A stretch of DNA of 64,000 nt from Carallia brachiata (taxonomy: Eukaryota > Streptophyta > Magnoliopsida > Malpighiales > Rhizophoraceae). Position numbers and translations under genes: made by a program. The notes under the pieces were generated by a model. It was not told where the DNA came from. It worked only from the letters and a program-made list of their open reading frames with translations, and did not search any database. Every line of letters begins with the position of its first letter. The stretch's first letter is position 1. The stretch covers positions 1,322,218-1,386,217 of the forward strand of contig JADCRB010000064.1 in assembly GCA_021464245.1 (NCBI GenBank), given 5' to 3'. This document shows, one piece after another, positions 15,201-64,000 of the stretch.

Positions 15201-17689
15201 TTCTCATATTCGAACGGGATGAATTGAGGGCTAGAAAGGGAAGTTCAGATAAACGTTGCAGCTCTCTATATGATATTGCATTACTAACCAAGTGGGACAA
15301 TTGGATGTTTAATTATTAATTTGACAGTTTCATTATGATCAAATGAAGCTATAAAAAATGAAGTTATAACTACGTCAAAAAAAAAAATAAAGCTATAAAA
15401 AAAAAAAAAGAAGCTAATGGCTTTCACAATAATAACTTCGATTGGGAAACAATAAATTCATCCCCGAAGCCGTAGAAAACGCAAGGAAAAAAGAAAAATT
15501 GTTGGAAATAAATTATGAGATTGATGAAAAAATTTTTCTGACCTTTATGGAATTTAATTCCTCATCTATCAAACGTCAAACACACGTACGAACATACTCA
15601 CTCATATAAGTACATTCACACTTTTATCTTCGTCCCACTTGCGTTTTATTAATTCTCGGCGAAACTCCAAATGTCACATTCAAAGTGATCTCCAGAGCGA
15701 TAATTGTGGCCTTGAGGTGATGAGTTCATGCAAGGAATAGAAATCATAACTTTGAGTGTATGGATAAAATATGACATGTAACATGTTGGAACTTAAAATG
15801 GAAAATGGTGTCAGTTATACGCATTTTAAATTCAAAACTCTTTCAATACATTTTATGTTTCAATTAGGTAGCCACGACGATAGAATTTTGTATTAATAAT
15901 TTGGGAATTTGTTTGAAATAGATTCTTCGTCATAAAAAAGTGACATGAGAAATTTTTTAGGTAAAAAAAATTATAGTACCAGAGGAGGAGGCAATTGAAG
16001 ATGCCTCCGAAAGCAACTACACTCTCATTTTTTTTCAACAGCGTCTCTACTTTTTGCAATAAAAACAAAAAATACATTTGATTGTTTTTTATTGTAAAAA
16101 ATAGAGACATGGTTGTAAAAAATAAGGCATAATTGCATTCAAACGCATTCTCAGGCGCCTTCTCCTCTAATGTTATAATGTCTCTCTTTTAGGTATATTG
16201 TCAAGAAATAATTAAACTTGGAAATTTGACCTATAAGGTGGAGTCAAAGAAAGAATTAGATATTGATATGCCTCCTCATGCAGAAGGCCATTGGATGGAA
16301 GTATGAAGAAAACAAAGTTTACTTTACCTGTAAAAATCCACAATTAAAATGTTAAAGCAATGTAATTGATAAAGAAGACCTCTCAATCATATATAAATAG
16401 TGTACACAAAGATTTTTTCAATAATTCTAATTGATTACTTTAAGAAAGGTACAAAAATATAGGAAAAGTATGATTGTTCCCCTATTGTCATGTATCTTTA
16501 TTGTTTCCCTTTTTATGTTAAACGAGACTTAAGAATGTGAGATACTAAAATATGTAATAGTACATACATGATTAAACATGTAGAATATTACACATTAAGT
16601 GACATAGAGAATATGCACTTTTTTCCACCATCTCACCAAAAAATAGTAGATTCAAGGAAGAATGTGGAACATTAACAATTGGCTTGTTCTAGTGGTATCC
16701 GCTGCCCGGCTACTGATTAAGGACAAAAAAAAAAAAAAAAAAGAGAGTATTGTTACGTAGACGGAAAACAGAAGGAGAAATTTTTTGTATGTAACCAGTT
16801 AATTTATTTGTACAATAAGATGTTTAATTTCTGTAACAAAAAATATATGAAAAAATACTTTAAAATTTTTGTAATAATTTAACATTTTGTTACACAAATA
16901 AAATAACTGATTGCATAAATAAATTTTTTTGTTTATTCTCCGTTCACTAATCCTGTCCACCTATCTTTTCTAAAAAAAAAAACTTGGGGATAATGAGGAA
17001 AGGAAAAGAGCAGCAAGATTTTTGCATATGCATCAACGGTCTTTTATATATGCAACATCAATGGTCAAGTTGACTTTTGCACGGTCTCTCACTAGCAATC
17101 TACAATCATCCACGGTACAATGATAGCATATGAGTCTAGTACTACATGGCAAATAAACAGGGAAATTCGATCTCCCTGAACACATAATGGCATGCGGCAA
17201 TGGCATATAGCTCTGTTTTGGGATCAAAAAGTTGATGAATTTATATTTCTGATGATTTAATGGCATGGAACCCACGAAGCAGTTTCCTGTGGTCCCGCAT
17301 TTAATTTGGCTATGAATGTGCATTCCATGCAAAGGCAAAGTCGTATAAAAGGGTATCACAGTGCAGTTATATAATTTGGTATACTTAAAAAATATATAAT
17401 TAATTTAATAATTTATTTATTTTTTAAATTTAATATATTTTTTTATAATTTAATAATCTAAATATTATATTAACTCAAAAAAAAAATCTAAATATCATAA
17501 TATTAAATTTATACTTGTTATTATGTACTTACCTAATTTTACGAGGAAAACAAAAAGAAGAGAGATGAATTCTCTGCTCCACTCCACGTGAGAGTACGAC
17601 AGACAGATAGCCAATAGATGGAAAAAGGTTTCTTTTTGAGCTTCAACAAGAGCAAAAAAAACAAGGGCGCCATTACACTTTCAAAATTA
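9258..17689. other. 8.4 kb of AT-rich DNA without a supported gene
   Basis: No domain-bearing frame, tRNA or rRNA was seen. It contains (TA)n runs (9464-9481, 14033-14050), many A/T homopolymers, and a GTTTGG-type MITE-like start near 10805. A short piece at 16675-16742 reads like the 3' end of a retroposed SINE/LINE, ending in an A run. The frames at 12126-12365, 13080-13403, 14102-14305, 15853-16110 and 17033-17359 look like chance open frames. Confidence 0.4.
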
Positions 17690-17864
17690 GGTATCTTATA
17701 CGAATTTTTTTTGTGCAACCAGACAAACATTTTGTGCAACCAGACGAACATTTTGTGCAACAAAAAATATAGAAAAATACAAGTGTTTCTTGTTGTACAA
17801 AATAACAGTCTTATTGCACAAAACGTTGATCTTGTTGCACAAAAAAAATTCAGGCAAGATGTCC
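17690..17864. repeat. Symmetric inverted repeat built from 21-bp units
   Basis: TTGTGCAAC occurs at 17711, 17732 and 17753, exactly 21 bp apart. Its inverted form (GTTGTACAA, ATTGCACAA, GTTGCACAA) occurs at 17792, 17813 and 17834, again exactly 21 bp apart. Paired start and end coordinates all sum to 35553, so the array is a perfect mirror about 17776/17777. Pairing extends outward: GAATTTTTTTTGTGCAAC on the left matches GTTGCACAAAAAAAATTC on the right, then TATCTTATAC against GGCAAGATG. The array stays open on both strands because its sequence is self-complementary, so those frames are not genes. It may be a foldback/MITE core or a hairpin RNA source; I do not recognise the family. Confidence 0.8.
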
Positions 17865-20245
17865 GATTCGGATGCCTTACTTTTTTCCAAAAAAAACAAA
17901 TTTTGGGACTCAGTACTGATTGAAAATTGGCTGATAATTGACCCCCTCGTGCGACTCCTGCAAAATCAGTCTTCTCTGATTTAACCAATAATACAGACAA
18001 AACCTTCTTTTGTTTCTTCTCACTCAGACACTGGTGAGTGCCGTGCTGCCATGGGTGATGATGTGTCGTTCCTCTCTTCTTCTTACGGAATGCCTTCTTT
18101 TCATTATAACCATTGTTTTTATTTTTATTTATTTATTTAGTTATTTTTTGTTGATTATTATCCGTATCATGGAGAGGGAGTAGAACCAACCTGAGTTGAG
18201 CATGTGTCTTTCTGGACGTACTTTTTGGCAGATTATTTTGTGGCCTGTCCTATACCATTCAATGATGGACTTGTCTGGAACAACCGTTGAGGATCAATTA
18301 GCATAATAGATTGATCAATTAGCATAATATCCGTTGTGGGATTAAAACGATTGATAAATGCAAGTTTGCAGCATTTCCAAGGACTTCAGCATTGCTGTAT
18401 ATTAAAGAACACAACCCGTCGCTCAAGGACACAGACATCTATTCTAGAGATCTTAAACTTGTAGATTTGAAAAGGAATATTAAATTTATGAGAAATGAAG
18501 AAAATTATATTTTTTTATAGTTCATAGTTAAATAAACTTTTTAATAGACAAGAAAAAAAAAAAAAAAACACAGCCCAGAGGGTGCTGGAGGAGAGTAGGA
18601 AATAAATTCGAATTTTGGAAAATTTTCAACGTGGGAGTGAATTAGGGTAACCTTGGAGAGAACAAGTGCTCTTGAGTATAAAAAAAAAAAGAAAAGAAAA
18701 AAAAAAGATGTCTTGGTCGAAGTCTTGTTTGAAGCATGGTATGCTAACTAATTGACCGCTTATTTTTTTTTTCTTTCATATCTAAACTAATTAGTCCTTA
18801 CTACAACAAGTAATGATTATAAAATAAAGGTACTAACTAATTTTACTTATTTTTTAAAAATAAAATTAACTCATGATCTAATATCATTCAAATATTATTT
18901 TAATTTTTTTATTCAAATAAACTCCACTTATCGTGTGGTGTAAGATTATAAGTAAGTTATACTCACTTAAAAAAAGGAGTTAAAACAAAAATCCCCTAAA
19001 ACAAAATAATGCCACTTGACAAATAATTTTAGAAACGTTAACATTATTCTTTTATGCTAAGTGCATGGGACTAGATGGTGCCATGGAGGCAATTATTGGC
19101 TCCTCCCTTCCAATCATGCCTTTATTTAATACAAAAAAGAGCTTAATTTTTCCAAGTATTTACCAATAAATGCATATTCCATTTAAGTATTGCATATGCA
19201 TAACGCATATGTGTGCGTAAACCATATATATTACATATGTATGTGTGTATATGATGATGCCAACACATGATAATGGGCCATGAGCAATTATCCAACGGTA
19301 ACAAGTTGAAGTTTGATCGTATGTGCCCAAATGAGGGATCAATGATCCCAATTGTCCCCCATTGAGAAATACGTAACCACACATGCGATTGTGCAGCCAT
19401 ATATCCGGGGACCATATGTAAAGCTAGATAGATTTTTATGCGTGGCCAGCACCCCCTGCTTTACCACATCTTGCCAAGTTACACGGTCTCCACAAGGAGT
19501 ACTTGCCTGATTTTATACGACTTTAATAATTGAAAAGAATGTGATGCCCCAGAAGCAAGTTATTTGCTAGTTAGGCCGGCAGTCGCTACAGGTACAGTTG
19601 GTGGAAGGTCCCAAATGTCAGATGGTGATCGATTGGGGGCTATAGATTGGTACTTTTTAGAAGAGTCTATCTACTTTTCTTACACACCCACGATGAAAAC
19701 TGAACAAAAAGTGTCAAAAACCAGACATGTCTGAATCTTTGAGACACTTTGCTCCCAGCAATCAATGCCGCAGTAAATGGAAGATTGTTTTTTCATATGA
19801 TTACCGTTACTTAGCCACTGTAAGAAAAATCCTCTAGCCTCTAGGAATTCTTGCATGCAAGCTGCATCATTATAATCGTACTTCTTTTACCTCCCCAAGC
19901 GCCTAAAATGTCCTATTAGTCTTTTTCATCGTGCCTCGTGAATTGTTTAAATAAGAATGAACGAGTATATAATTTATTCAATAATATTTAAAATTTTATT
20001 TATTTTTTTAAATTTATTATATAATAAATCATATTATAGAGTATTTATGTGTGACTCAATCAACGTGAATGCCTTAATTTTTCTAAAAGAAAAACATAAA
20101 ACAACTGTATGTATATTTAGTTATAAAGTTATAAGTGAAAAGAATCAGCAATTAGAAAATAACTATTTCTCATTTATGTTCTTTACCCAATAACCCATAT
20201 GTGGCTGGCAATCAAAAAAAAAAAAAAAATCAATAATTCAGGAAC
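17865..20245. other. Intergenic DNA downstream of the MATE gene
   Basis: No supported gene. It contains A-rich runs near 18550 and 18680, and a small perfect hairpin GGGATCAATGATCCC near 19335-19350. The segment adjoining 20245 should hold the MATE 3' UTR. The open frame at 19143-19415 has no recognisable domain. Confidence 0.4.
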
Positions 20246-21850
20246 TCAACCCAATAATTGAGACGTCAAGTCATCTTCTTCTTCGCCGTTCTTACGTTCA
20301 CGAGGCAGCCCCAGATCCCCATATCCGACGCGCGTTAGCATCTGGGACCTCTTGGCTTGGAACTGCCAATCAGTGGTCCCCACCGCATACAGCATCAGCA
20401 CAGCACAGCATGCCTGGGCCGACAACAGACCCATCCAAAGCCCACAAAACCCAACTCCAGCCCAAAATGCAAGCCCAACTGCCACGGGCATACCCACCAG
20501 ATAGAAAGCACCGAGGTTTATGTTGGCTGCACTGGTCGGCCGGGCACTCCCTCTGAGGACCCCACACCCCGCCGTCTGCGGGCAGTTGCCGAGCTCGCAC
20601 AGCCCTAGGATCGGCAGAGCAGCCGACGTCAGCCGTAGGATCTCAGCGTCGCCCGTGAACATCCGGCCCCACCGATCCTTCATCCCCGTCGCGAAAATCG
20701 AAGCTGATAGGCCCGTAACGGCTGAAAGAAAAACAGCCACCCCAGCCGATAATTTCGCTCCGTCAGGACGATTTGCCCCGAGCTCGTTCCCCACTCGGGT
20801 CGAAACCGCGAACCCGAGCGAGCTTGGGAAAATGTAAATCAACGACGTCGTTTGAATCAATATCCCCATTGAAGCGACCGTCGATTTGGGGTTCGCCAAA
20901 ACCCCGCAAAAAACGATCATGATCTCATACCACCACCACTCCAAACAAACCGATACGCAGCTTGGCGCCGCCAGCCGGACGAGAGGCATCCAACCGGACA
21001 GACATTCTCGGCTCGGCTTAGTCCACGTGGGCTCGTGCAAGCCCGAAGCCCACACGTAGGAAACCAGAAACAAGAGCAGAAACAGGTTGGATGCGGCGGC
21101 TGCTGCGGCGACTCCAGCGACGCCGAGCTTGAAGTGATTGACGAGCAAGAAATTGATAGGCAAGTGAAGAATGGCGCTGTTGAGGGACGCCAATGTTAAA
21201 GGGTGGGTGATGCCTTGAGTCCGAAGGTAAATGCGGATTGGGTGGACGAAAGAGTTGGCTACAAGGTCAGGCAGAGAGAAGAGCAAATAAGTTTGAGCGA
21301 GACTTATAATGTTCGGATCTTGGCGAAGAAACAGAAGGATTTTCGACACGTTGAGCCAAAGTACTGAAATGGGTATCGAAGAAAACAGGAGGAAAATCAC
21401 GGAGCGGTGAAGGGTCAGGGAGAGTAGCTTCGGACGTTGAGCTCCGAAAGCCTGGGAACAAAGCGGCTCCATTCCCAGAGCGAGGCCCGACAGGACAGAG
21501 TAACCAGTTATGTTGGCAAAGGCAATAGCGAGAGAACCGGCGGCCAGCTCGAGGTCACCGAGACGGCCGAGGAAGAGCATGGAGGTGATGGAGCGGAAGT
21601 AGAATATGAGGGCTGTTAGGGCTATCGGGAAGGCGAGTTTGAAGAGTGACTGAATCTCAGAAACGACGCCCGAAAGAATGTTGAATGCATCTGGAGATGA
21701 TGACGATGGATTTGCATTGGGATTCTCTGGGTCTTGAGCAATGGTGGTACTGGGTAGTTGCGGCAGGACTTGGACATGTTGCAGCTTTTGCGCTGGTTTC
21801 TCGCTTACAGGCAAGATGGGAAGGCTGCTGTTGGCCTTTGGATTACACAT
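20246..21850 (-). CDS. DTX51/ADP1-like MATE efflux transporter
   Basis: An intronless frame of 534 residues starting MCNPKANSS. MATE proteins are 12-helix antiporters that export organic cations, flavonoids, hormones or toxins using H+ or Na+ gradients. Family motifs follow in order: SMLFLGRLGDLELAAGSLA, FANITGYSVLSGLALGMEPL with CSQAFGA, HPIRIYLRTQG, CVSVCLEWWWYEIMI, STRVGNELGANRP, GLCELGNCPQTAGCGVLRGS and NLGAFYLVGMPVAVGL. The sequence is closest in my memory to Arabidopsis ADP1/DTX51, whose relatives sit in endosomal or Golgi-linked membranes and affect organ initiation and growth. The frame is open upstream to an ATG at 22123. I chose 21850 because MCNP is the usual subfamily start, the upstream 91 codons are low-complexity with a long Ile run, and a TATA-like box lies between the two ATGs. 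No damage is seen. Confidence 0.93.
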   Translation of the reverse strand: MCNPKANSSLPILPVSEKPAQKLQHVQVLPQLPSTTIAQDPENPNANPSSSSPDAFNILSGVVSEIQSLFKLAFPIALTALIFYFRSITSMLFLGRLGDLELAAGSLAIAFANITGYSVLSGLALGMEPLCSQAFGAQRPKLLSLTLHRSVIFLLFSSIPISVLWLNVSKILLFLRQDPNIISLAQTYLLFSLPDLVANSFVHPIRIYLRTQGITHPLTLASLNSAILHLPINFLLVNHFKLGVAGVAAAAAASNLFLLLFLVSYVWASGLHEPTWTKPSRECLSGWMPLVRLAAPSCVSVCLEWWWYEIMIVFCGVLANPKSTVASMGILIQTTSLIYIFPSSLGFAVSTRVGNELGANRPDGAKLSAGVAVFLSAVTGLSASIFATGMKDRWGRMFTGDAEILRLTSAALPILGLCELGNCPQTAGCGVLRGSARPTSAANINLGAFYLVGMPVAVGLAFWAGVGFCGLWMGLLSAQACCAVLMLYAVGTTDWQFQAKRSQMLTRVGYGDLGLPRERKNGEEEDDLTSQLLG

Positions 21851-22123
21851 GATGCTGGTGATGATGATGATGATTATGATGATGATGGTGCTTGTACTCT
21901 TATTAGTCTCCGCTTTTTCAGTTTTACTGTCGGGAGATTTACACTCGTGAAGAGCACTCTTTTCTGCTCCTCCTGAATTAGCTCTCTCCCTCTTCCCCAA
22001 GGATGTATGTATGTGTAGTATGTATTTATGAGGGATTGTGGATGATAGAGCATAGATAGGAGGAGGAGTGCTTTTGCCCTTAGATGGGACTGAGGAGAGG
22101 AAGGATATTAATAGAGGAGCCAA
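21851..22123 (-). other. Probable MATE 5' UTR with a (GAT)n-type repeat
   Basis: In frame with the MATE gene but probably untranslated. It encodes a run of isoleucines from a trinucleotide (ATC/ATT) repeat at about 21852-21885. Trinucleotide repeats in a 5' UTR can be polymorphic and may change leader length. If translation did begin at 22123, the N-terminus would gain 91 residues with no recognised targeting signal. Confidence 0.6.
22023..22030 (-). promoter_or_regulatory. Candidate TATA box of the MATE gene
   Basis: The minus strand reads CATAAATA about 175 bases upstream of the chosen ATG. This would place the transcription start near 22000 and leave a leader of about 150 nt. It lies downstream of the farther ATG at 22123, which favours the shorter protein. 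Confidence 0.4.
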
Positions 22124-34899: not shown

Positions 34900-35860
34900 A
34901 GGAATTGTGATGAAAACCGGACATGGGGCGGCCCGGTTTTTTGGGGGTTTGATCGGTGGTTTCAACTAAAGGTAGGTCGGTTTAGACGGTTTAGTGGAAA
35001 AAATTATAATTAATTTATTATAGTGGTGGTTTCAAAATTTTAAATTACAATCAATCTGTCAACCGTACAAATCGTCCAAATCAATCCGTAAAATGGTGGG
35101 TTAATTTGGACGATTTGGACTGTTTTCTTAATTTTAAAACTTATTTTTGATTTTTTTAAAATATTTATATAAAATAAAATCTAAATATTTCAATTAAATA
35201 TTAAATTAAAAATTTGAAAATTTAGTATAAAAGATTGAATTCTAAAAGTAAGTTTTCGATTTTTCTAATACTAATTTCACGTGTAATCAAGTCACAAAAA
35301 GATTGAATTTTAATTGTATAAAAGACCTTGTAGTCCAACTTTAAGTATAATTGAGATGCACAAAGACCTTATGAGTACAATTTTAATTAATTTCATAAGT
35401 AATCAACAGCAATCCAAAGCTTATATTTTTAAATACAATTTTGAATTATAACATGCATCAAGATCGTGGGATCAAAGAAGTAACATTTTTAAACATTTAA
35501 ATGCACACAAACTTAAAAATATTGTTAAAACTTATACCTTATTATCCTAAATAAAAGAAATTAATGGTTAAAAATTACTCATTCTTAACAGTGATTGGAT
35601 CCTTTTCAATTATTTTTGAAAAATTAAAAAATAAAAATAATATATGTTACACACACATACATATATATATATATACTGATTGGATCGGTTAACCGCGGTT
35701 TTTAAAATTATAAAATCGCCACTAATTCGCCTTTGACGGTTTTAAAAATTTTAAAACTGTGAATAATCTTTTTTTTTTGTGATTTTAGTAGATGCAAATA
35801 AATTCAATACAAATTGGGCGGTTTTTGACAGGTTAAACAATTTATGAAAAGCCTAGTTTC
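34900..35860. mobile_element. hAT-like non-autonomous element, long copy
   Basis: Its right part (about 35680-35860) is clearly related, in reverse orientation, to the element at 48212-48397: shared pieces include TTTTAAAACTGTGAATAAT and the end TTTATGAAAAGCCTA. Its left part (about 34970-35130) is related to the block at 49310-49445 through TTTGGACGATTTGGACT and CAAATCGTCCAAA. The interior is AT-rich with no transposase. The left terminus is uncertain. Confidence 0.5.
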
Positions 35861-42365: not shown

Positions 42366-47356
<4,991 letters not shown>

Positions 47357-47571
47357 AAATTTTTAGGCAGATGAAAGATGTGTGACTTTTCCACTTTTGT
47401 ATATTATCCCTCTCCCCTTTGTTTTGACTTTCTTCGGATCATCTGGATCTGTTCACGGCACCTAGTTTATGACAGTGTATTGTCCTACTGAGCTTTTAAA
47501 AGCAAGCAGTGGATAAGTGCCCACTAATGGCCCATTAGTGCAGCAGTGGACCATTCAGTTATTTTTCTTTT

Positions 47572-47577
47572 GAATAA
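47572..47577 (+). terminator. Candidate polyadenylation signal of the hexokinase
   Basis: AATAAA about 215 bases after the stop codon, preceded by a T-rich stretch. It is a plausible near-upstream element for 3' end formation. Confidence 0.4.
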
Positions 47578-47589
47578 ATGTTAGTGTTC

Positions 47590-47740
47590 CGGTAGTTTGT
47601 GTGTCGAGTGAAACTGAGATTGTTATTTTTGAAATTAAAACTGATATTTTTAAAACAGTTATTATTTTACGTTTCAAAAATATCAGTCACAGTTTTAAAA
47701 ATAACAGTCATGGTTTTACCCAAGACAAAACTTAGGGACA
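47590..47740. mobile_element. Hairpin MITE just downstream of the hexokinase
   Basis: The left arm runs through TGTTATTTTTGAAATT and ACTGATATTTTTAAAACAG, and the right arm is its imperfect reverse complement (CAAAAATATCAGT, CAGTTTTAAAAATAACAGT). The centre is near 47670. Weaker pairing extends out to GTTTGT/ACAAAAC. No coding capacity. Confidence 0.55.
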
Positions 47741-49309
47741 TGTAACTGCACTCTTTTCTTTTACATGGTTACAGAATAAAACTTGGGGCCATATAATGTT
47801 ATTTGTTTTTAAGTTGCTACATTCGGCAGAACATTTTATCTATTTGCAAGTGGAAATAAAATGGGAATTTTTTTCTATTAGCAGCAGTAGACCACCATGA
47901 GCTTGCTATGGTATCAGTTTAGATAGGACTGGCCATCACTTGCCATAATGCAAAGGAGGTCTTCATCTGTAGTATGACCGGTTGCATTGATTTACCATCA
48001 AAATAAGCGTTAGTACAGTTGCTTAACTTGATTGGGTAATCAAGCTGGTTTGATCCTGCGTATTAATTGTGCTTGCCTTTGAGCTACATTCCCTTGGGTA
48101 CTAACTGAATGAAGCTAAAACAGTTGCATGTGCCGATCCGAATGGCTGCCGGTAGTTCAGAAGTTCTCTAGTTCACTATATGCTTGTCTGTAGCTCTTGC
48201 ACAGCTTGAATTAGGGCTGTTCATAAACCATCTAATTCGTCAAAAACTATCTAATCTGTACCAAATTTATTCGCATCCGCCAAAATTGTAAATAAAAAAA
48301 TTATTCACAGTTTTTAAAATTTTAAAACTGTTAACGGGGAATTGGTGGCCGTTTCGTATTTCTAAAAACCACAGTTAATCGATTCAATCTATCCCTACTT
48401 AATATTTTAATATATATATATTATATATACTAGAAATTACTTCGTTTCCTCTAAAAAAATAAGCTTTACCATAAAGCACATCGACCATAAAAAAAAAAAA
48501 AAGTTTTGTCTTGTCCAAATTGCAGTGGTGCTTTCAATTTTTTGTTTGTTTTCGGATTTGGGTATTCAAATTTTTGTTTGGTTGCTGATGTAATGAAGGA
48601 ACAGAGGAAGAAGTCCAAGTTTTTGTCTTTGAGTCTTATTGCGTTGGTTAAATTAGCTTAGAAAAAGGCTAACTTTTTGAAGTCAAATATTATTATTTGG
48701 CTCCCTGGAATATGATATTAGTTTTCTTATGTGTTTTTAAATTTTGAAGTCCCTTTCTTGATCATCCAATTTCATGGAATACTGTGTAGCATGGAATCGT
48801 GAATTTTAATTTAGATGTTGAAAGTTTAAAAAAAATTTTTTTTAACAAACACTATCCATTTCCCTCTCTAATATTGATTTCCATTTTTGTAATTTGCTCA
48901 TACTATCAACAGTGCCAAGGAATTTTCAAGCCTTTTTTTCTTTTTCTGGGGTTCCAAGTGCTTGAATTAGTCATTCAAAGGACAAGGAGAAGAAGTGAAT
49001 AGAATTCTGTAGTTTCCTTGAGAGCTTGTGCTGTAATAGTACTTGAGTTATAAAAAATGACTGTGGTTGGAAAGAGTAAAGAAATAATACTCTCGGACTT
49101 CAATTGTAGTAATAGTAATATAAATCTCCGAAGGACAAAGCAAAATTATGAAAAAATTAGTAATTTATTTGTTTCTCAAACATCAGTTACATAATTTATT
49201 AACTGTTTATTTAAATAAATATCTAACTGAATTTTTAAATTTTTAAATTTAATATTTAACTAAGACATTTAAATTTTATTTTATATAGATGAAAAAAAAT
49301 AAAAAGACA
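47741..49309. other. Intergenic DNA between hexokinase and receptor kinase
   Basis: Besides the hAT-like MITE at 48212-48397, no gene is supported. The two genes converge here, so both 3' ends lie in this stretch. The plus frame at 48799-49002 is short, AT-rich and without a domain. Confidence 0.4.
48212..48397. mobile_element. hAT-like MITE with TAGGG/CCCTA ends
   Basis: It begins TAGGGCTGTTCATAAACC and ends ATCCCTA. The flanks CTTGAAT (left) and CTTAATA (right) could be a decayed target duplication. In reverse orientation it resembles the right part of the element at 34900-35860. Ends of the form TAGGGCTGTTCA are common in plant hAT MITEs. Confidence 0.6.
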
Positions 49310-49445
49310 AGTTGTGGAACTAAGAAAAGTCCAAATCGTCCAAACCAATCCGTCTAATGACAAATTGATTTGAATGGTTTTAATAGTTAACAATTGATTG
49401 CAGTTTAAAATTTTCAAACTGTTACTAAACCGTCCAATTCAACTT
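49310..49445. repeat. Fragment of the same dispersed repeat family
   Basis: Read on the minus strand it matches the left part of the 34900-35860 element: GGACGGTTTAGT, TTTTAAACTGCAATCAATT and TTTGGACGATTTGGACTT. It lies about 80 bases beyond the 3' end of the receptor kinase coding region and may lie in its UTR. Confidence 0.5.
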
Positions 49446-49527: not shown

Positions 49528-52500
49528 TCACACGTTGGGAGTGAATTCACTTTCACGAACCCTCTCGCACCTTGAATTCTTGAGGAGGGGAGTGGCATCA
49601 TAGTCGCTTCTTAAGTTCTCTCCGTGCATGAGTGGATGGGCGCTTTGAAGCAAGATTTGCAGAACATCTTTCATTCGAGGCCTGGCAGATGGCAATTTGC
49701 TGGTGCACATAATTCCAAGCTTAAAAACATTGCTCATTTCTTCCAGGTAACAAGGTTCCTTGATTTCATCATCTAAGGCATCAGATATTGGCTCTCTTTC
49801 TTGCACGTGATGCCGAGCCCAATCAGCCAGGCAGGAGTTCTCGTCGCCATTTTGAGGTTCCTTTCCTGTTGTTAGTTCTAGCAGGACAACCCCAAAGCTA
49901 TAAACATCAATCTTCTCATTCACCCTTGCTGTGTGGGCATACTCTGCAATTCAAATCATAAAAAAGGTGCAGGTAAGCTCTTAACATATAGCATAATAAC
50001 ATGAAGAACTCTGAACTCTAACTCACCTGGAGCTATGTAGCCAAAAGAGCCGGTGACGGCTGATACGGTAGCAAGTTCGCTCGGCTTGGCCAACATCTTG
50101 GCTAAACCAAAATCAGCAATCTTTGCATTGAACTCAGAATCCAGTAGGATATTGCTTGATTTTACATCACGATGAATAACAGAAGGTACGCAGTCATGAT
50201 GCATATAATAGAGACCCTGTGCAGCTCCCACTGCAATCTGCAACCTTTTCGGCCAGTCTAAGACAACACGATGGACTGAACCGGAGGTGGTGGTTGATCT
50301 CTGTCTCGTATGTAGCCACCGGTCTAGACTATGGTTCTCCAGATATTCATACACGAGAAGTTTTGAGTCACCATCGGAGATGCAACAAAGCAACTTCACT
50401 ATGTTCAAATGCCTTATTGTGCTCAGGATCTCAACTTCTGCAAGGAACTCCTTTTCTAGTTTCTCATCAATCTTTCTGTTATTGCAGATCTTCTTCACAG
50501 CAACGACATCTGAATGATTTATGGGTATACGGTAGACTTTTCCGGATCCTCCGCTACCAATCACGTTGCTTTCTGTCAATTTCGACAATATGTCTAATTC
50601 AGTAAAATTCAACTTGTGGAATGAGATGAGTGACCATGTTGAATCCAATCTGTTATTTCTCCTCTGGCAAATTCGGATGGCGAACCATGAGAGAAATAAA
50701 GCCGACACAAAGATGACTGCTGAAGCACTCAATATCAAGGCTAGGAACCGATTTGAAGTTTTGCTCCGTTCAAGGGGCCTGGAATTACAGATGTTAAGGC
50801 GTACGGATGAGCTACTTGTGCAGAGACCAGGATTGTTCAAGAAGCTATCGGCATAAGCACCATTTTCAAACGTACTTGGGATTGTCCCTGTGAGCTGATT
50901 GGAAGAGAGATTCAGAGAAGTTAGCTGCTTAAGGAAGCCTATTTCAGCGGAATTTGCCCAGAAAATTGGTTACCTGACAAGTCCAATTGGGACAGGACTG
51001 GCAAATTACCGATTGCCTCCGGAATATTTCCAGAAAGTTGATTTTGACTGAGATTCAGAGTGTTTAAAGATTTCCAAGAGATTATATCAGATGGAAGGTC
51101 CCCAACAATTTGGTTCTTATCAAGCAAAAGAGTAGTCAGAAAGGGAAAAGCGGTTAACTCTTGAGGAATTGTGCCAGTTAATCGGTTGTTGCTTGCATTA
51201 ATAACCTTAAGATTCTGCCAAGAACTCAAATCAGTGGGGATTTCACCAGAAAACCCGTTGTTACTGATCTCAAGTCGCGAAAGATTCCCTGACACTTCGT
51301 TAGGCAGCTCACCGGTGAACATGTTGTCGTTTAACTTCAGGGTTGACAAATTGAAAGCTTTCCACAGACCAGCAGGAATGTTGCCAGAAAATGCATTATT
51401 TTCAACCATGACCCGTAGCAAACTGCAGCAGTTCCCCAGCGATTCAGGCAATTCTCCACCCAGATTGTTGTCAAAAGCTACCACTCCCACTAACTTGCCG
51501 TTGCTGCATAAATATTCTGGCAGCCTGCCGGTAAGCCTATTGGATGAGACTTGGAATCTTTCAAGCATTGAGTATCGCCCGAAATCCGGAGGAATAGGAC
51601 CCGACAAATTGTTGGTATACACGCTAAAATCAATCAACGCTGGAAGACGACCAATGCTCTCCGGGATTTGGCCAGAAAGTTGATTGAAGAACAAAGCTAA
51701 GCCTGACAATTTCTCAAGCTTTCCGAAATCGTCAGGTATTGTCCCATTCAAATTATTCACAGAAAGATCGATGATAGTCAAGTTCGAAGCCTCCACAACC
51801 TGAGGAATCTCCCCAGATAGCATGTTCTTGTAGAGGTACAAAATCTTCAAATTCTTCAACTTGAACAGAGCTCCAGGGATATTCCCAACCAATTTATTTG
51901 CTGACAAATCCAACCACTCCAGTGCCTCCATTTCTCCGATCGTTTCCGGGATCTCTCCAATCAAGTTCGCATCAGAAATCCACAATTCCTTCAGTTTCTT
52001 CAGCTGGGTGAAGCCGGAAGGCAGCCTGGAAGGCAAGAACTGATTGTCAGCCAAACTCAGCATTTCCAGGTTAGACAGGTTTCCAATTTCTGGCGGGAAA
52101 GTGCCATTAAACAGATTCTGATGAAGCTGGAGAGTTCTCAGCCCCCGTATCCGCCCTATAGCAGCCGGAATGTCTCCGGTGAAGTTGTTGCCACCGAGAT
52201 TAAGGTCAGAAAGCCGAGCCATGCGATCTATACCATAAGGAATGGTTCCCACAAAGTAGTTCTGAGAAAGGTTGAGGAACTCCAGCTTGGAAAGATTGTA
52301 GAGGAACGCAGGGAACGTCCCCGCGATGCTGTTGTCAAAAAAATCAAGAAAAGTGAGATTCTTGAGGTCAGTGATGAAGGGTGGGATGGTTCCGGCGATG
52401 TTCTTCTCGCCGAGAGATAGTCTGGTGACGGAGCCATCGGTGCAGTTGACTTCCGGCCAGGAGCAGTGGTTGGAGTCTGACGGGGACCAGTGGCTGAGAG

Positions 52501-52627
52501 ACGGTGGGTTCTGCCAGTGCCGCTTTAGTCTGAGCAGTGTTGCTTGTTCTTGGCCTTGTGTTTGAGAATTCACGTGGCTGATTTGGAAGAAGAAAAGGAC
52601 GAGAAATTGGATTGCAAGACTGCGCAT
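49528..52627 (-). CDS. HSL3-like LRR receptor kinase, with a one-base frameshift
   Basis: Exons are 52627-50027 and 49943-49528; the single GT-AG intron falls inside GYIAPE of the kinase, as in LRR-XI receptors. About 1005 residues are expected. A signal peptide (1-22) leads to a Cys pair region (NHCSWPEVNC), then about 21 LRRs with LSGxIP-type repeats, one transmembrane helix (about 628-651), and a kinase with P-loop GSGGSGKVY, VAVKK, IHRDVKSSN (RD type), DFGLAK and GYIAPEYAHT. Overall it resembles Arabidopsis HSL3 (At5g25930), a receptor for CTNIP-type peptides that signals through SERK co-receptors. The LRR frame runs into TAG at 50939-50941: CCGCTGAAATAGG is seen where CCGGCTGAAATAGG would continue into GFLKQLTSLNLSSNQLTGTI. 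Both sides of the break are otherwise intact, so I favour an assembly error or very recent loss. Read as is, it encodes a secreted LRR fragment of 562 residues. Confidence 0.9.
50944..50951 (-). other. Single-base deletion at the last LRRs of the receptor kinase
   Basis: The plus strand reads CAGCGGAAT; one extra C (CAGCCGGAAT) would restore the conserved IPAEIG motif and connect the LRR array to the transmembrane and kinase region. With it, total exon length becomes divisible by three (3018 nt). Confidence 0.85.
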
Positions 52628-55600
52628 TTTTTTTTCGAGGTTTTTCAGCCCGTTGCTCTGAGTCTGGACTTTTGAGTTTTAGACTCTGGCTTTGGATTTT
52701 CCAGGTGAGCTGCCAAGAAAGACCCGTTCTTGGTTTATTTAAACCGCGTGTGGAAGAACGCATTGAAAAGTAGTGACACCGGTACATGTGTTTAAGATGG
52801 TAAAGAGGTACAGGGGATGTTCGGTTTTACGTTTGGGATTTGTTATCGTTGCTGTTGTAAAAAATAAGAATTTTAATATTTAGTTAACTTTTCTAAACGC
52901 TGCTAATTGTTAGTAAATTTTTTTAAAAATAACTGATAAAAAAAGTAAGTTGAAGTTGGTTTTTATTTTCATCATATTCATATTACAATTACACAATTAC
53001 CCTCTCTCTTTCTCAGAAAAGGCGCTTGCAGGGCAATTGTTATTGAATTGGCTTGCGGCGCTAATTGAATTTTCTCCTCAAACACCAACAATGCCGTACA
53101 TGCCAAGAGGCGCATTTATTAAGTTTTTTTTTTAAAGCTTCTTCTTTTGTAAAAGCTGAAATGAATAATAAAATGATATTATATTATTTGTAAATGGTAA
53201 TTATATTGTAAAAGTAAAGTAATGTTGTTTTCATAGTCTTTTTTTTTTCTTGTTTTGTTTTTACTGTATAAACAATAATTTAAGCAATAAAAATAATAAT
53301 ATTTTTGAATATATAGTAGTACTTTGTGAAGTAAAAATAATATTTATAAAAATATTAAAATTTATTATACATTAAAATTGATTAGATATATTTTTATAAT
53401 ATTAGTTAACATTAACTAAAGGTTAAAGGATAAAATATTGTAATAAAATAGAAAATAAAATGTCTAAAATGATTATTTTATTATTTAATCAGTTTAAACA
53501 ATATAAATTAATTTATTTATCAGTAACAACAATTAATACAGTAATCAACAATCAGTAATCAGTAACAATAACAATAAGTAAATCAAACAAGCCATTACTC
53601 TTGCGTCAGAGATTAGGAGTTTGAGTATCTGTTAAGTCATGTAGTGTAGTTAAATGTATATTAAATCTGCTGGATCATTAAAGGTCTTGTAGTAGTCTTG
53701 CAAGAACACTTAATATGTTCGTGAGATTTGCTCCCTCACGACTTCACAGGTTCAATATATATAACTCGACTTACTTCTCACAATGATTCAGTACAATTCT
53801 TCTTGATGGATCTGTAAAACATTACTCTTGCTTACCTATTTAAATGAATTGAAGGGAAAATGGCAAATTATTTCAACCTTGAGAAACGATGTTAGGATCT
53901 GGAAATTGAGAGAAGGTTGGTTGCATACACTCTATGAATTTCAAACATTCGAGATGAGATCATAATTAAGCACAATTGTTAGATATACATTTGTTATTTA
54001 TGTTATTAATTACGATTATACGTTGAAACGTTGAATGTATTGATACATAGTACAAAATAGATAGTATAAAATAAACTAATGTTATATTATATAAAATATA
54101 ATAAGATAAAAATAATTCTATCTTATACTATATATCAACAGCACCTACAAAGTGTAGGTTGAATAGGTTCAAATTACTGCTTAATTTGTGGAAAGAAAGA
54201 TAATACTGACAATTTTCTTGAAGGAACAGACAATAATTAAAAATTAAAAATCTATCGTAGAAATGTTAAATTTTAATTCTAAAATTGAATATAAAATTTA
54301 TGAAAATAAAAAAAATATATTTTGATAGAGAAAAAAAAAATGTTACCACCAATTTCTGTCGAAGGACAAAATGTGTCAAGTCATTAGAGTCAAAGTTATT
54401 ATCTAAAATGGTAGTTTAGTAGTGACCTGATATATCTCCTTTACCTTTGATTTTGTTTCGAGTTTTATAGGCAGCGTTTACGAGTGTTTGACTTTCAATT
54501 TATCTGACTACGATCTTTGATTTGTCTGACTTTGACCGTAATCCGCATGTTTTTAGTTTCAGACTAGTTAACATTTGGTCAATAATCAGCTTGAGAAAGG
54601 TTCGCTCGAATTCAATAGTACTCAAGTGGATGATTCTTTTTTTTTAGTTGAGTTGAATAGAATATAAACTAATATAAAAATTAACTTTAATTTATAAATT
54701 TAATAATTAATATATTCATAATAAATTTTTTTAAATTAAAAAAAAAAAAGGTAGAGTCAGAGTTTTGCTTTATTTCATTCTAATTAAAGTAACGTTTACC
54801 CAAATTTTGACCAAATAACGTGGCGTATACGACATGAGATGAACAAAAAGACTTTGATTTTTATTTTATGATTTTTTTTACCACCCACACGATGGTTTTG
54901 GCTCTGGTCAAAGGTCAACTTGTGACAACTTTTCCAATCTTTCCAGAGAGACAGGGATGGTCTAAACCTCACACTTGAAATCTCATGTTTGCCCTCGTGA
55001 CTACATTAAAATCAGCCCCCCAATCCGGCCGTTATTTGTACGACGGGTATGAATGAATGTCACCATCCATCAAACTGCTTACAATTAGCAGTTGAATTTC
55101 GCTCTTCTTGACTTGTAGAAGAATCATGGATCGGGCACAGATTCAAGATTCCTTAGTCCAACAACGTGACCATGGCGGGAATGGTCATTCAGCTCGTTCT
55201 ACTCCTCCTTCTTTTTATTTTTCTTTTATATATATATATATAAACATATAAAGTTTTCTATAATTTTTTTAAAGTTAATATTTAAAAATATCACTAATTT
55301 TTTTAAAAATAATATATTTAACACTAATTTTAAAAAATAACAATTTACTTTTATTTAAATTTTTTGTAATAAATTTAATACGTCGTGAAATTTTTAAATA
55401 AAATTTATTTATTTTTACGATATAACACTAACGTATATGATTATCATGTTATCAAAACAGACATATTCTCATAAATCTGTCATTGAAACTAGCAGATTCT
55501 ATTCATATGAAATCATTACATATTAAATTTGTTATAAAAAAATTTAAAAATAAGTAAATTATTATTTTTTAAAAAATTGATACTATATTTATTATTTTAA

Positions 55601-55675
55601 ATAAAATTGATGATATTTTTATATATTAATTTTTTTTTATCGAAATTTAAATGTGAATTTTTATTGTTATAGACT
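52628..55675. other. 3 kb of AT-rich DNA upstream of the receptor kinase
   Basis: Adjoining 52628 are the leader and promoter of the receptor kinase. Further on there are only AT-rich stretches, a (TA)n run near 55229-55242 and unplaced sequence. No gene is supported. Confidence 0.4.
52734..52743 (-). promoter_or_regulatory. Candidate TATA box of the receptor kinase
   Basis: The minus strand reads TTTAAATAAA about 110 bases upstream of the ATG. Spacing fits a leader of about 75 nt. Confidence 0.4.
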
Positions 55676-56373: not shown

Positions 56374-58617
56374 TTCTTCCCCCTCAACCAAATCCTTGTC
56401 AGGATTTGTGAAATACAACCAGAGATGCCCACGATGCAGCGAAGTGGTCACAATGCCAGCAAGCATGTCATCTGAACAATTGCTACGTGCTCCTAAATGC
56501 AAGGCCACCATCACTGCCAGTTGCCAATATTAAGGCCCTGTGATAGCGTACTCAGCATAGAATATATAATCCGCATAGCAAGCTCCGCCGTATAAGAACC
56601 AACAAGTAAAATGCACACGTAGGCTGCTAGCACTTTCATGGCCCTCAAGTCATACGATGAGTTTACTCTAACTTTACAAGTAACCACAACCAGATATGAT
56701 AACTCATAGCAGATTCCACTTGCAGGCGAGCCTAATCGTGACAGAATTTCAAACATCAGCGAAATTTTTGAGACCATGCTTCTTTCCAGAACATAACAAA
56801 ATGCAGCAAGAATGGTGTCTGCTGGCTGCAAGTAACTATCATGATTGTCTTGCCCACTACCATCTGTTACTTCGTCCATCCCAATCTTCAAGAACCTATC
56901 TATAAAGCAAGGCACAACCACAAACTTTGTAATTGCTAAGATGACGAAGAAAGTTGTTGCACCTTTCCAATCCACGACATTGCTGCGGACTCGCACCATA
57001 TAAGCATAGCATCTGGAAACAACACTCGAAAAGTTAAAAATCATAATCATACCAGCAATTATCTTCCTCATCCCAACTAAGAGAAGGCAGCCCAACAGCC
57101 TAAATTTGGCTCTTAATGCATCTCCAATATGTCTAACAATTTTGATATCCACATAATTTCTAACATTTTTCCCCCAGTACAGAACATCCTTGTTCCCAAA
57201 GATGGATGATAAACTAACATAATGTAGCACAGACTCAAGATTTGCACGAGCAATTCCCCTAATCAGAGAACCACCCTCCCTATAGGATTCAAGAAATTGA
57301 ATCGCAACATCAGAATTCCTCCCACTCATCAATTGACAGTGCAACATTAGAATGTCATACGTCAGCTTCGGCAAAATGGTGACATTAGAATATACGGGTA
57401 GCTTCAAGCTCAATAACAAGAATCTTCATTTGACTCAATAATATGGCATTCTAAAACACATCCAAATGGCGGATAGGCAAACAATTGCAGGATAAGCAAC
57501 GTCTCGCTAACCCAAGCATATTCAATCGCAAGTATGGAATTACAAGCAAACTTATGATAAATATACTTGTCAAGAAAATCAATAAGGAATCTTCATTTGA
57601 CTCAATAATATGGCATTCTAAAACACATCCAAATGGCGGATAGGCAAACAATTGCAGGATAAGCAAAGTCTCGCTAACCCGAGCATATTCAATCGCAAGT
57701 ATGGAATTAAAAGCAAATTTATGATAAATATACTTGTCAAGAAAATCAATGAGTATTGGCTTAGCTTTAAGAAGAATCTTGACGACGGAGTCCAATGTGA
57801 GGTGGGTATCTCTAAAGATTTGTACATTGGGTATATTGTGAAGACATTGGAGAAGGACTCAAGGAAGTCGGAAATGTCTTCTTCAGTGTCAAATTCACCT
57901 TCTACTGCCAAGTTTGTCCATAATAACCCAACCTGTGCAAGAAATTCTGCATAGAGCCATGATTGTATAAGGCTCTCAACCTGGTTGGTGACTACCTTCA
58001 GCTCCTAGTCTGGGGATTTGAAGAGAGACCCATCCTGTAAGATTAAATTCACAAACTGATGCTGGAAAAGGAAAGAACTCATGGCAAGATCTGCCAATTG
58101 TTCCAATTGTGATCCCACAGATGATTTTCCAAAAGACACAACCCAGAAGCACCTTTGAATCATGCCCTTGCCAACAGGATAATAGCTCCAATAATTATTA
58201 ATTCCAGCAACCAGTAATGAATTCTCCAAATAATCAATCACCTCAGAATTATTCTCTTCTGGCAACATTTGGGCCGAAGAAGAATCTCTTCATCTTGACC
58301 CGAGGTCTCGAATCGTCAACAAAATCGATGACACTCCAGGATTCACAAAACATTTCAGTATCACTTAGCCCTTTTAACAGAATTGGCAATAAAGCAAACT
58401 TTCGTGTCCTACACTTCCCCATATCTGCCAAAGAAAAGTCTACAAAAACCATGGATTGCCTTTCGTCTAGTTGAGAACAAGCCATTATAGGTCCCATTGT
58501 CGGATAATTTTTGCAATTGATAACAAAATCCACATTGATGCCCTTGTCTGAGTCAATGTCCATGACATCTTTCGTACTCAGAGCATCATTCCCTTTTTCA
58601 AAAGACAAACCCACCAC
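56374..58617 (-). pseudogene. Decayed membrane-protein reading frame of unknown family
   Basis: From 58617 downwards the minus strand is coding-like but broken. MVGLSFEKGNDALSTKDVMD opens a 122-codon frame. A shift leads to a second segment (58268-58005, ending FKSPD then TAG) that continues past the stop as ELKVVTNQVESLIQSWLYAE to DISDFLESFSNVFTIYPMY. Another shift gives DSVVKILLKAKPILIDFLDK with a 167-bp tandem duplication. A further shift gives a long frame (57419-56511) with hydrophobic stretches near TTFFVILAITKFVVV and VLAAYVCILLVG. After NIGNWQ a last shift continues as QLAVMVALHLGARSNCSDDM to YFTNPDKDLVEGEE. At least four frame changes and one stop are needed to join it. I do not recognise the protein. 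It may be a gene carried by, or next to, the LTR-like block. Confidence 0.55.
57421..57754. repeat. 167-bp direct tandem duplication
   Basis: Copy 1 is 57421-57587 and copy 2 is 57588-57754, with few differences (for example CAACGTCTCGCTAACCCAAG against CAAAGTCTCGCTAACCCGAG) and no indels. 167 is not a multiple of three, so the duplication shifts frame in the decayed minus-strand gene. The near identity of the copies says it is younger than most of the other damage. Confidence 0.9.

Positions 58618-60012: not shown

Positions 60013-64000
<3,988 letters not shown>

What the first reader, a model, noticed from the sequence alone, without database searches (positions are those of the whole stretch)
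17690..17864. Perfectly mirrored array of six 21-bp units
Three TTGTGCAAC units spaced exactly 21 bp apart face three inverted units with the same spacing, and all three pairs share one centre (coordinates sum to 35553). Left units 1 and 2 are almost identical, while opposite partners differ more, so the array was not made by one recent inversion of the whole arm. Twenty-one bp is two helical turns, so all sites face the same side of DNA, and it is also the length of a Dicer product. Either a phased protein-binding array, a hairpin RNA or a foldback transposon core is possible. I do not recognise the family.
Basis: partly seen in the sequence, partly recalled or inferred. Interest (0 to 1): 0.75.

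Follow-up and report, generated by a model that had tools for sequence, protein, structure and literature searches.

The report
Decayed foldback transposon with 21-bp units
The mirrored array is most likely the worn-out remains of a small hairpin-shaped jumping element in a flowering-plant genome; it is ordinary in kind, but its 21-base repeat unit turns up again in other hairpin elements nearby, one of them seemingly unrelated.

Summary
Three 21-bp units (17709-17771, +) face three inverted units (17782-17844, -) around one centre, inside a 75-nt, 79% complementary inverted repeat, the strongest local one in the window. It is not unique: the three strongest local inverted repeats (centres 17776, 47663, 16852) all have 21 as best internal period. 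The 16852 element is a relative of 17776, matching in register at 53 of 76 against 41 for the best place outside both. The 47663 element is not detectably related to it. Three elements have flanking direct repeats of 9-12 bp, uncommon under local nulls. The host is a eudicot, probably Malpighiales. Best reading: a decayed non-autonomous foldback-type MITE, probably of the Mutator superfamily, whose units are remnants of a two-helical-turn transposase-binding array; Muta1 and Tm1 are precedents with 12-15-bp units. An RNA role gained little support. Copy number could not be tested: the own-genome search failed 13 of 13 times.

The parts
17653..17664 (+). Left flanking direct repeat CAAAAAAAACAA (candidate target-site duplication; 12 bp, where 9 is usual for Mutator)
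   Evidence: same 12-mer at 17888-17899; 0 of 200 shuffled and 0 of 200 real local right flanks gave 12 or more. A-rich.
17665..17887 (.). Candidate full extent of the foldback element if the 12-bp repeats are the target duplication
   Evidence: the outer 28 nt of the two ends match at only 8 of 28 without gaps, so the exact ends are inferred.
17693..17767 (+). Left arm of the inverted repeat
   Evidence: pair I1: 75 nt, 79% complementary
17709..17729 (+). 21-bp unit L1 TTTTGTGCAACCAGACAAACA
17730..17750 (+). 21-bp unit L2 TTTTGTGCAACCAGACGAACA
   Evidence: 20 of 21 to L1
17751..17771 (+). 21-bp unit L3 TTTTGTGCAACAAAAAATATA
   Evidence: 18 of 21 to L3 of the 16852 element
17768..17785 (.). 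Short stretch between the arms
17782..17802 (-). 21-bp unit R3 TTTTGTACAACAAGAAACACT
17803..17823 (-). 21-bp unit R2 TTTTGTGCAATAAGACTGTTA
17824..17844 (-). 21-bp unit R1 TTTTGTGCAACAAGATCAACG
17786..17860 (-). Right arm of the inverted repeat
17888..17899 (+). Right flanking direct repeat CAAAAAAAACAA
16778..16927 (.). Sibling element (centre 16852): arms 16778-16829 and 16876-16927, same 21-bp register
   Evidence: (53 of 76 in register)
15955..16195 (.). Possible third relative (centre 16074): arms 16029-16065 and 16086-16122, two units per arm, flanking 9-bp repeat TTTTAGGTA at 15955-15963 and 16187-16195
   Evidence: against: profile hits no better than the reversed-window control and best period 28
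47563..47762 (.). Second, unrelated-looking foldback element with 21-bp units: arms 47597-47656 and 47671-47730, flanking 9-bp repeat TTTTCTTTT at 47563-47571 and 47754-47762
   Evidence: unit profile not similar to 17776 (400 of 2000 shuffles as good)

Best explanation
It is the decayed copy of a small non-autonomous foldback-type DNA transposon (a MITE), probably of the Mutator superfamily, in a eudicot genome. Its long terminal inverted repeats are built from three 21-bp units each. While the family was active, each unit's 11-bp core (TTTTGTGCAAC, containing an imperfect palindrome TTG-NN-CAA) probably offered one site for the transposase of a full-length partner. The 21-bp spacing, two turns of B-DNA, would put all sites on one face of each end, and the mirror arrangement would present both ends alike for pairing and cutting. 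Shown here: the array, the inverted repeat, a related copy in the same window, and flanking direct repeats uncommon under local nulls. Inferred: mobility, the Mutator assignment, and transposase binding. The near-identical left units 1 and 2 are best read as a later within-arm duplication or conversion, not as part of the founding inversion.
For: (1) Sibling: the 76-nt left arm of 17776 matches 16777-16852 at 53 of 76 exactly in register; its own right arm matches at 56, and the best place outside the two elements at 41. The left arm of 16852 matches the two arms of 17776 (53 and 50 of 74) better than its own right arm (47). A profile trained only on 16852 finds both arms of 17776 (E 1e-5 and 1e-3; best on the reversed window 0.74). 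Trained only on 17776 it finds one arm of 16852 (E 1.4e-4; best on the reversed window 0.0036). (2) Same architecture elsewhere: the top three of 25 listed inverted-repeat centres, and only those, have best period 21; with arms analysed separately, 4 of 6 elements tested have 21 as best combined period between 10 and 40. (3) Flanking direct repeats at 17776 (12 bp; 0/200 and 0/200 in two nulls), 47663 (9 bp; 2/200 and 3/200) and 16074 (9 bp; 2/200 and 14/200). (4) In 17776 the core is conserved and the tail variable: 2/66 against 17/60 mismatches to the column majority, Fisher p 8e-5. (5) Precedent, passages read: Mutator-type foldback elements with tandem units in their inverted repeats and 8-10-bp target duplications (PMC3169594, PMC5225508); Tetris, a foldback element with 8-10-bp duplications assigned to Mutator by its authors (PMC4079207); a plant foldback Mutator family of MITE-like copies (PMC4486113).
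Against: No copy number: the own-genome search did not complete (13 of 13 attempts). The flanking repeats were spotted by eye before they were tested (note), so the nulls are not blind. The 12-bp repeat is A-rich, and the ends it implies match at only 8 of 28. The 16852 sibling has only poly-A as an exact flanking repeat and no 9-11-bp repeat of three or more letters with up to one mismatch in the zone searched. Its core is not significantly more conserved than its tail (15/66 against 21/60, p 0.17). The tandem units in the Mutator papers I read are 9-15 bp, not 21. No transposase was found, and none could be sought outside this window.
Confidence: 0.7

Rival explanations
1. It is a MITE-like foldback element, but of another superfamily (hAT, PIF/Harbinger, CACTA, P or Tc1/mariner); the unit array is then a subterminal binding array of that transposase.
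For: Tandem subterminal repeats, in some elements in opposite orientation at the two ends, also occur in PIF/Harbinger elements of Medicago (60-bp units; passages of PMC2213677). The Tetris paper says that exceptions to Mutator exist among foldback elements. The outer ends of 17776 are too decayed to read the superfamily from terminal sequence (8 of 28).
Against: The direct repeats found are 9, 9 and 12 bp, not 2, 3 or 8; the paper on Tetris says most foldback elements seem to be Mutator.
Confidence: 0.18
2. It is, or was recruited as, a hairpin RNA locus whose transcript is cut into 21-nt small RNAs; the 21-bp period would reflect Dicer register.
For: Very stable fold on both strands (z -9.8 and -9.2). 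Sub-threshold Rfam matches to long plant hairpin families such as MIR1435, MIR2606 and mir-5014, with E-values down to 6.6e-7 in a 241-base search. In 17776, 8 of 10 transition mismatches are wobble-compatible on the - transcript.
Against: No Rfam family reaches its gathering score in the window; the best sub-threshold score is 47.4 against 94 bits. The wobble lean is absent in the other three elements counted (3/3, 6/5 and 2/2 for + and - transcripts). Two of the same Rfam families (MIR4208, MIR2646) also match the unrelated 47663 element, so the matches look like a response to long A+U-rich stems. Dicer measures from the end of a duplex and needs no sequence period (established knowledge).
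Confidence: 0.07
3. It is a host regulatory array: a phased binding-site cluster for a plant protein.
For: Conserved 11-bp core in 17776, two-turn spacing.
Against: A diverged copy lies 0.9 kb away with the same mirrored layout, and an unrelated-looking element has the same plan. Whether a gene lies close by was not tested: the Pfam scan of 14.0-18.5 kb was not accepted and one search lists open frames only.
Confidence: 0.03
4. A plain minisatellite that became inverted by local rearrangement, never mobile.
For: Tandem units with one near-identical pair.
Against: In-register relative at 16852 and flanking direct repeats.
Confidence: 0.02

Closest known systems
Muta1 and other Mutator-like families of Aedes aegypti (PMC5225508, passages read)
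   Same: Long inverted repeats made of subterminal tandem repeats (Muta1: 9 copies of 12 bp with 3-4-bp spacers), 8-9-bp target duplications, many short non-autonomous derivatives with variable repeat number; called a type 2 foldback element there.
   Different: Unit of 21 bp, three copies per arm, plant host; no transposase gene, copy number or activity known here.
Tm1, a Mutator/Foldback family of root-knot nematodes (PMC3169594, passages read)
   Same: Composite inverted repeats with a tandem 13-15-bp motif, 8-10-bp (mostly 9-bp) duplications at 45 of 53 complete elements, MITE-like members.
   Different: Different unit length and sequence; variable copy number of the motif at the two ends, whereas ours has three at each; nematode host.
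MuTAnT of Medicago truncatula (PMC4486113, section 10 and passages read)
   Same: Plant, 90% of copies 200-300 bp, a type copy of 292 bp with 144-bp inverted repeats and almost no loop, Mutator superfamily.
   Different: Inserts in TA microsatellites; no 21-bp tandem units in the parts I read.
SIRC, short interrupted repeat cassettes of Arabidopsis (PMC10342631, passages read)
   Same: Short direct repeats separated by diverse spacers, which the authors trace to MITE interiors.
   Different: Defined by direct repeats, not by a mirrored layout; no fixed 21-bp spacing in the passages seen ('21 bp' does not occur in the main text).

Membership tests
Foldback-type element / MITE | Long inverted repeats with little or no middle region | tested here: met
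   75-nt arms, 18 nt between
Foldback-type element / MITE | Inverted repeats composed of short tandem units | tested here: met
   Three 21-bp units per arm
Foldback-type element / MITE | Dispersed related copies | tested here: inconclusive
   One relative (16852) and one possible relative (16074), both within 2 kb; genome-wide search did not complete (13 attempts)
Mutator superfamily (non-autonomous) | 8-10-bp, mostly 9-bp, target-site duplication | tested here: inconclusive
   17776: 12 bp, A-rich; 16074 and 47663: 9 bp; 16852: none but poly-A
Mutator superfamily (non-autonomous) | Inverted-repeat ends shared with an element encoding a MuDR-type transposase | not testable with these tools
   No plant genome could be searched
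Mutator superfamily (non-autonomous) | Matching terminal sequence at the two ends | tested here: inconclusive
   Outer 28 nt of the two candidate ends of 17776 match at 8 of 28 without gaps
Plant microRNA / hairpin RNA gene | Match to a known precursor family at its curated score | tested here: not met
   0 matches at gathering score in the window; best sub-threshold 47.4 against 94 bits
Plant microRNA / hairpin RNA gene | Discrete small RNAs from the stem | not testable with these tools
   No small-RNA reads available

The most novel reading that the evidence does not exclude
In this plant lineage, foldback elements of unrelated sequence (17776/16852 and 47663) have settled on the same 21-bp unit. 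This would mean that two helical turns, or a 21-nt product, is a functional constraint on such elements and not an accident of one family. The array would then be a general 'ruler' module for synapsis by plant transposases, or a built-in template for 21-nt silencing RNA.
Probability: 0.13. Interest if true: 0.55.

Novelty: new member of a known kind. Interest (0 to 1): 0.3.

Why it matters
If the 21-bp period recurs across unrelated foldback families, it gives a testable rule for how plant transposases read their ends, and a way to find decayed foldback elements by period alone. If not, this is one more MITE family and matters mainly for repeat annotation.

Tried and rejected
Chance: rejected; no shuffle folds as well (0 of 200), and the repeat tops the lists of local inverted repeats.

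Relatives in public collections: a one-unit pattern in viral contigs gave 1 locus, a single unit without array. A two-unit pattern gave 28 viral and 71 prokaryote loci. Of the 100 loci scanned by script (L001-L100), 36 held a pair spaced exactly 21 (37 pairs, two of them in L062); one of them (L042) had one opposite unit within 250 bp and was not inspected further, the others none. I take these as chance or unrelated repeats. A pattern for the 47663 unit in viral contigs gave 0. A protein search with an open frame across the array (17618-17920), tried in case predicted proteins of other plants hold the same repeat, gave 4 candidates and none at E 10 or better.

Relation between the 17776 and 47663 units: a shared 12-mer GACTGTTATTTT was seen by eye. 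Unit profiles are not similar beyond chance for 17776 and 16852 (400 and 478 of 2000 shuffles as good); for 16074 it is 21 of 2000. Treated as separate, with that reservation.

Element at 55.4 kb as a second copy of the 47663 kind: suggested by ungapped hits to both arms (36 and 35 of 63), but not found by the profile, and its period is not 21. Dropped.

Element at 16074 as a sure member: unit profiles agree, but its arm profile finds 17776 only at E 0.72 and 1.1 while the reversed window gives 0.13, and the joint profile of 17776 and 16852 finds it at E 0.66 with the reversed window at 0.87. A profile that included its own arms found it strongly, which is by construction. Kept as possible only.

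Unit-by-unit orthology between 17776 and 16852: same-position units match best among the 6 permutations (12.75 against 11.79 of 21). Suggestive only, 1 in 6 by chance.

First pairwise alignments with cheap gaps: of 4 pairs set against 300 mononucleotide shuffles each, 17776-16852 (120 against a maximum of 103) and 17776-16074 (98 against 82) exceeded every shuffle, 17776-47663 did so barely (99 against 98), and 16852-16074 did not (96 against 103). Judged too loose for A+T-rich sequence and not used.

Literature: ten searches. (21-bp, tandem repeats, MITE, inverted repeat, foldback), and one search gave 0. One search (21-bp repeat wordings with MITE) gave 7 papers, none on such an element by title. 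One search gave 48, of which 15 were listed. No description of a 21-bp mirrored plant foldback array was found by these searches, in an open-licence library only. Six papers were opened by passages (one of them also one section); none was read whole.

Full report
What is there. The array is as described: three 21-bp units at 17709-17771 on the + strand and three inverted ones at 17782-17844, with paired coordinates summing to 35553 in 3 of 3 pairs. Two of the six cores differ from TTGTGCAAC by one base. The array lies in a 75-nt inverted repeat with 18 nt between the arms (79% complementary). This is the longest local inverted repeat listed (arms at most 800 bases apart) and the best-scoring centre in a scan of arms within 110 nt of the centre. 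It folds far better than shuffled sequence on either strand.

Where it is. The window encodes plant proteins. A MATE/DETOXIFICATION open frame at 20246-22123 has relatives in Erythroxylum (77%), Jatropha (76%), Ricinus (74%) and Melia (73%) over 84% of its length among the first seven hits listed (120 of 2939 shown, and the top row by score is a longer Musa protein that aligns over only 37%). The host is therefore a eudicot, and Malpighiales is likely; the species is unknown. Whether a gene lies around the array was not tested: the Pfam scan of 14.0-18.5 kb was not accepted, and only lists open frames.

It has company. A scan of every centre in the window for local inverted repeats put 17776, 47663 and 16852 on top, and those three alone of the 25 listed had 21 as best period. 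In a finer test with arms taken separately, 4 of 6 elements had 21 as best combined period between 10 and 40: 17776 (z 7.1), 47663 (5.8), 16852 (3.6) and 16074 (2.4). The elements at 55450 and 34693 did not. The 16074 element had best period 28 in the coarser scan, so its 21 is the weakest of the four.

Which of these are related. The left arm of 17776 matches 16777-16852 at 53 of 76 positions in register, almost as well as it matches its own right arm (56); the best place outside the two elements scores 41. Profiles trained on one element find the other: from 16852 both arms of 17776 (E 1e-5 and 1e-3; reversed-window best 0.74), from 17776 one arm of 16852 (E 1.4e-4; reversed-window best 0.0036). 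Unit profiles of 17776, 16852 and 16074 agree in the same rotation (0, 0 and 2 of 2000 shuffles as good). But the arm profile of 16074 finds 17776 only at E 0.72 and 1.1, worse than the reversed-window control at 0.13, so its membership is possible, not shown. The 47663 unit is not similar to that of 17776 or 16852 (400 and 478 of 2000); against 16074 it is 21 of 2000.

Insertion marks. Exact direct repeats flank 17776 (CAAAAAAAACAA, 12 bp), 16074 (TTTTAGGTA) and 47663 (TTTTCTTTT). I had seen them by eye before testing. At 150 random centres per element, repeats of 9 bp or more arose in 1-5%. In two local nulls of 200 each, dinucleotide-shuffled right flanks and real right flanks within 6 kb, repeats as long arose 0 and 0 times for 17776, 2 and 14 for 16074, and 2 and 3 for 47663. 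I tested 3 of the 5 elements in this second way; the other two had a poly-A run (16852) and TAATTTTTTT (55450) and were not carried on. With one mismatch allowed, 16852 still had no 9-11-bp repeat of three or more letters in the zone searched. Two of three being 9 bp points to the Mutator superfamily, but three cases with low-complexity letters do not settle it, and the candidate ends of 17776 match at only 8 of 28.

How it probably worked. In 17776 the first 11 bases of the unit are nearly invariant and the last 10 vary (2/66 against 17/60, p 8e-5), although in 16852 the contrast is not significant (15/66 against 21/60, p 0.17). The core holds TTGTGCAA, an imperfect palindrome, TTG-NN-CAA (read directly). 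A conserved core every two helical turns, mirrored at both ends of an element, is what a binding array for a transposase should look like. Internal tandem repeats that hold extra transposase-binding sites are reported for the foldback-like Galileo (cited in PMC4079207, passage seen), and subterminal tandem repeats are common in Mutator families of a mosquito (10 of 12 families with long inverted repeats, units 9-15 bp, PMC5225508). Transposase binding here is inference.

The odd identities. Left units 1 and 2 match at 20 of 21, while opposite partners match at 15-17. The inner left units of 17776 and 16852 match at 18 of 21, and same-position units agree best among the six permutations (1 in 6 by chance). 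I read this as an array that was already three distinct units in the common ancestor, with unit 1 later copied over unit 2 in the left arm of 17776. This is inference.

Against an RNA role. No Rfam family reaches its gathering score anywhere in the window. There are sub-threshold matches to several long plant hairpin families, with E-values down to 6.6e-7. Two of these families, MIR4208 and MIR2646, also match the unrelated 47663 element, so I read them as a response to long A+U-rich stems. Wobble-compatible mismatches lean to the - strand in 17776 (8 against 2) but not in the other three elements counted (3/3, 6/5, 2/2).

What could not be done. No plant genome could be searched: the window's own assembly was not reached in 13 of 13 attempts, and pattern scans of viral and prokaryote contigs gave nothing I can tell from chance. 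Copy number, consensus ends, the partner transposase and empty sites therefore remain open. The verdict rests on one relative, the shared architecture, the flanking repeats and precedent.

Novelty. Foldback elements with tandem units are a known kind. What I did not meet in the papers opened is a 21-bp unit, or its recurrence in a second, unrelated-looking element of the same 64 kb. With two independent families this may be coincidence, and a genome-wide census would decide.

Changes on re-checking. The match of the candidate ends was recounted (8 of 28), the reversed-window control for 16074 was added, and the confidence of the best explanation was lowered from 0.72 to 0.70 for these two reasons; the two leading rivals went up by 0.01 each.

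Noticed in passing
43545-47147 and 60013-63607: Direct duplicate about 16.4 kb apart; 12 ungapped pieces listed, 85-98% identical, 11 of 12 at 94% or more. The first copy holds a hexokinase match (Pfam Hexokinase_2 on 46928-47356); the second runs off the window end.
   Followed up: partly
35057-35777 and 48290-49392: Three inverted-repeat pairs (61-100 nt, 71-84% complementary), 12.5-14.2 kb apart and collinear: probably two copies of one older repeat in opposite orientation.
   Followed up: no
55271-55633: AT-rich inverted repeat with 229 nt between its arms and about 30-bp internal period, perhaps a larger MITE-like element.
   Followed up: partly
57420-57753: 167-bp unit in two tandem copies, 97% identical, directly beside an open frame of 302 aa (56511-57419, -) without a Pfam match at E 0.001.
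   Followed up: no
509-529: Lone unit-like match ATTTGTGCAGCAAGACTGATT on the - strand, 17.7 bits, the best single unit outside the arrays; no array seen in the surrounding 361-720.
   Followed up: partly
17539-18132: Because 21 is divisible by 3, the array stays open in several frames, giving stop-to-stop frames up to 197 aa on the - strand; a gene finder could call them.
   Followed up: partly
49956-52627: Kinase (49956-50840) and leucine-rich-repeat (50939-52627) open frames side by side on the - strand, likely one receptor kinase gene.
   Followed up: no
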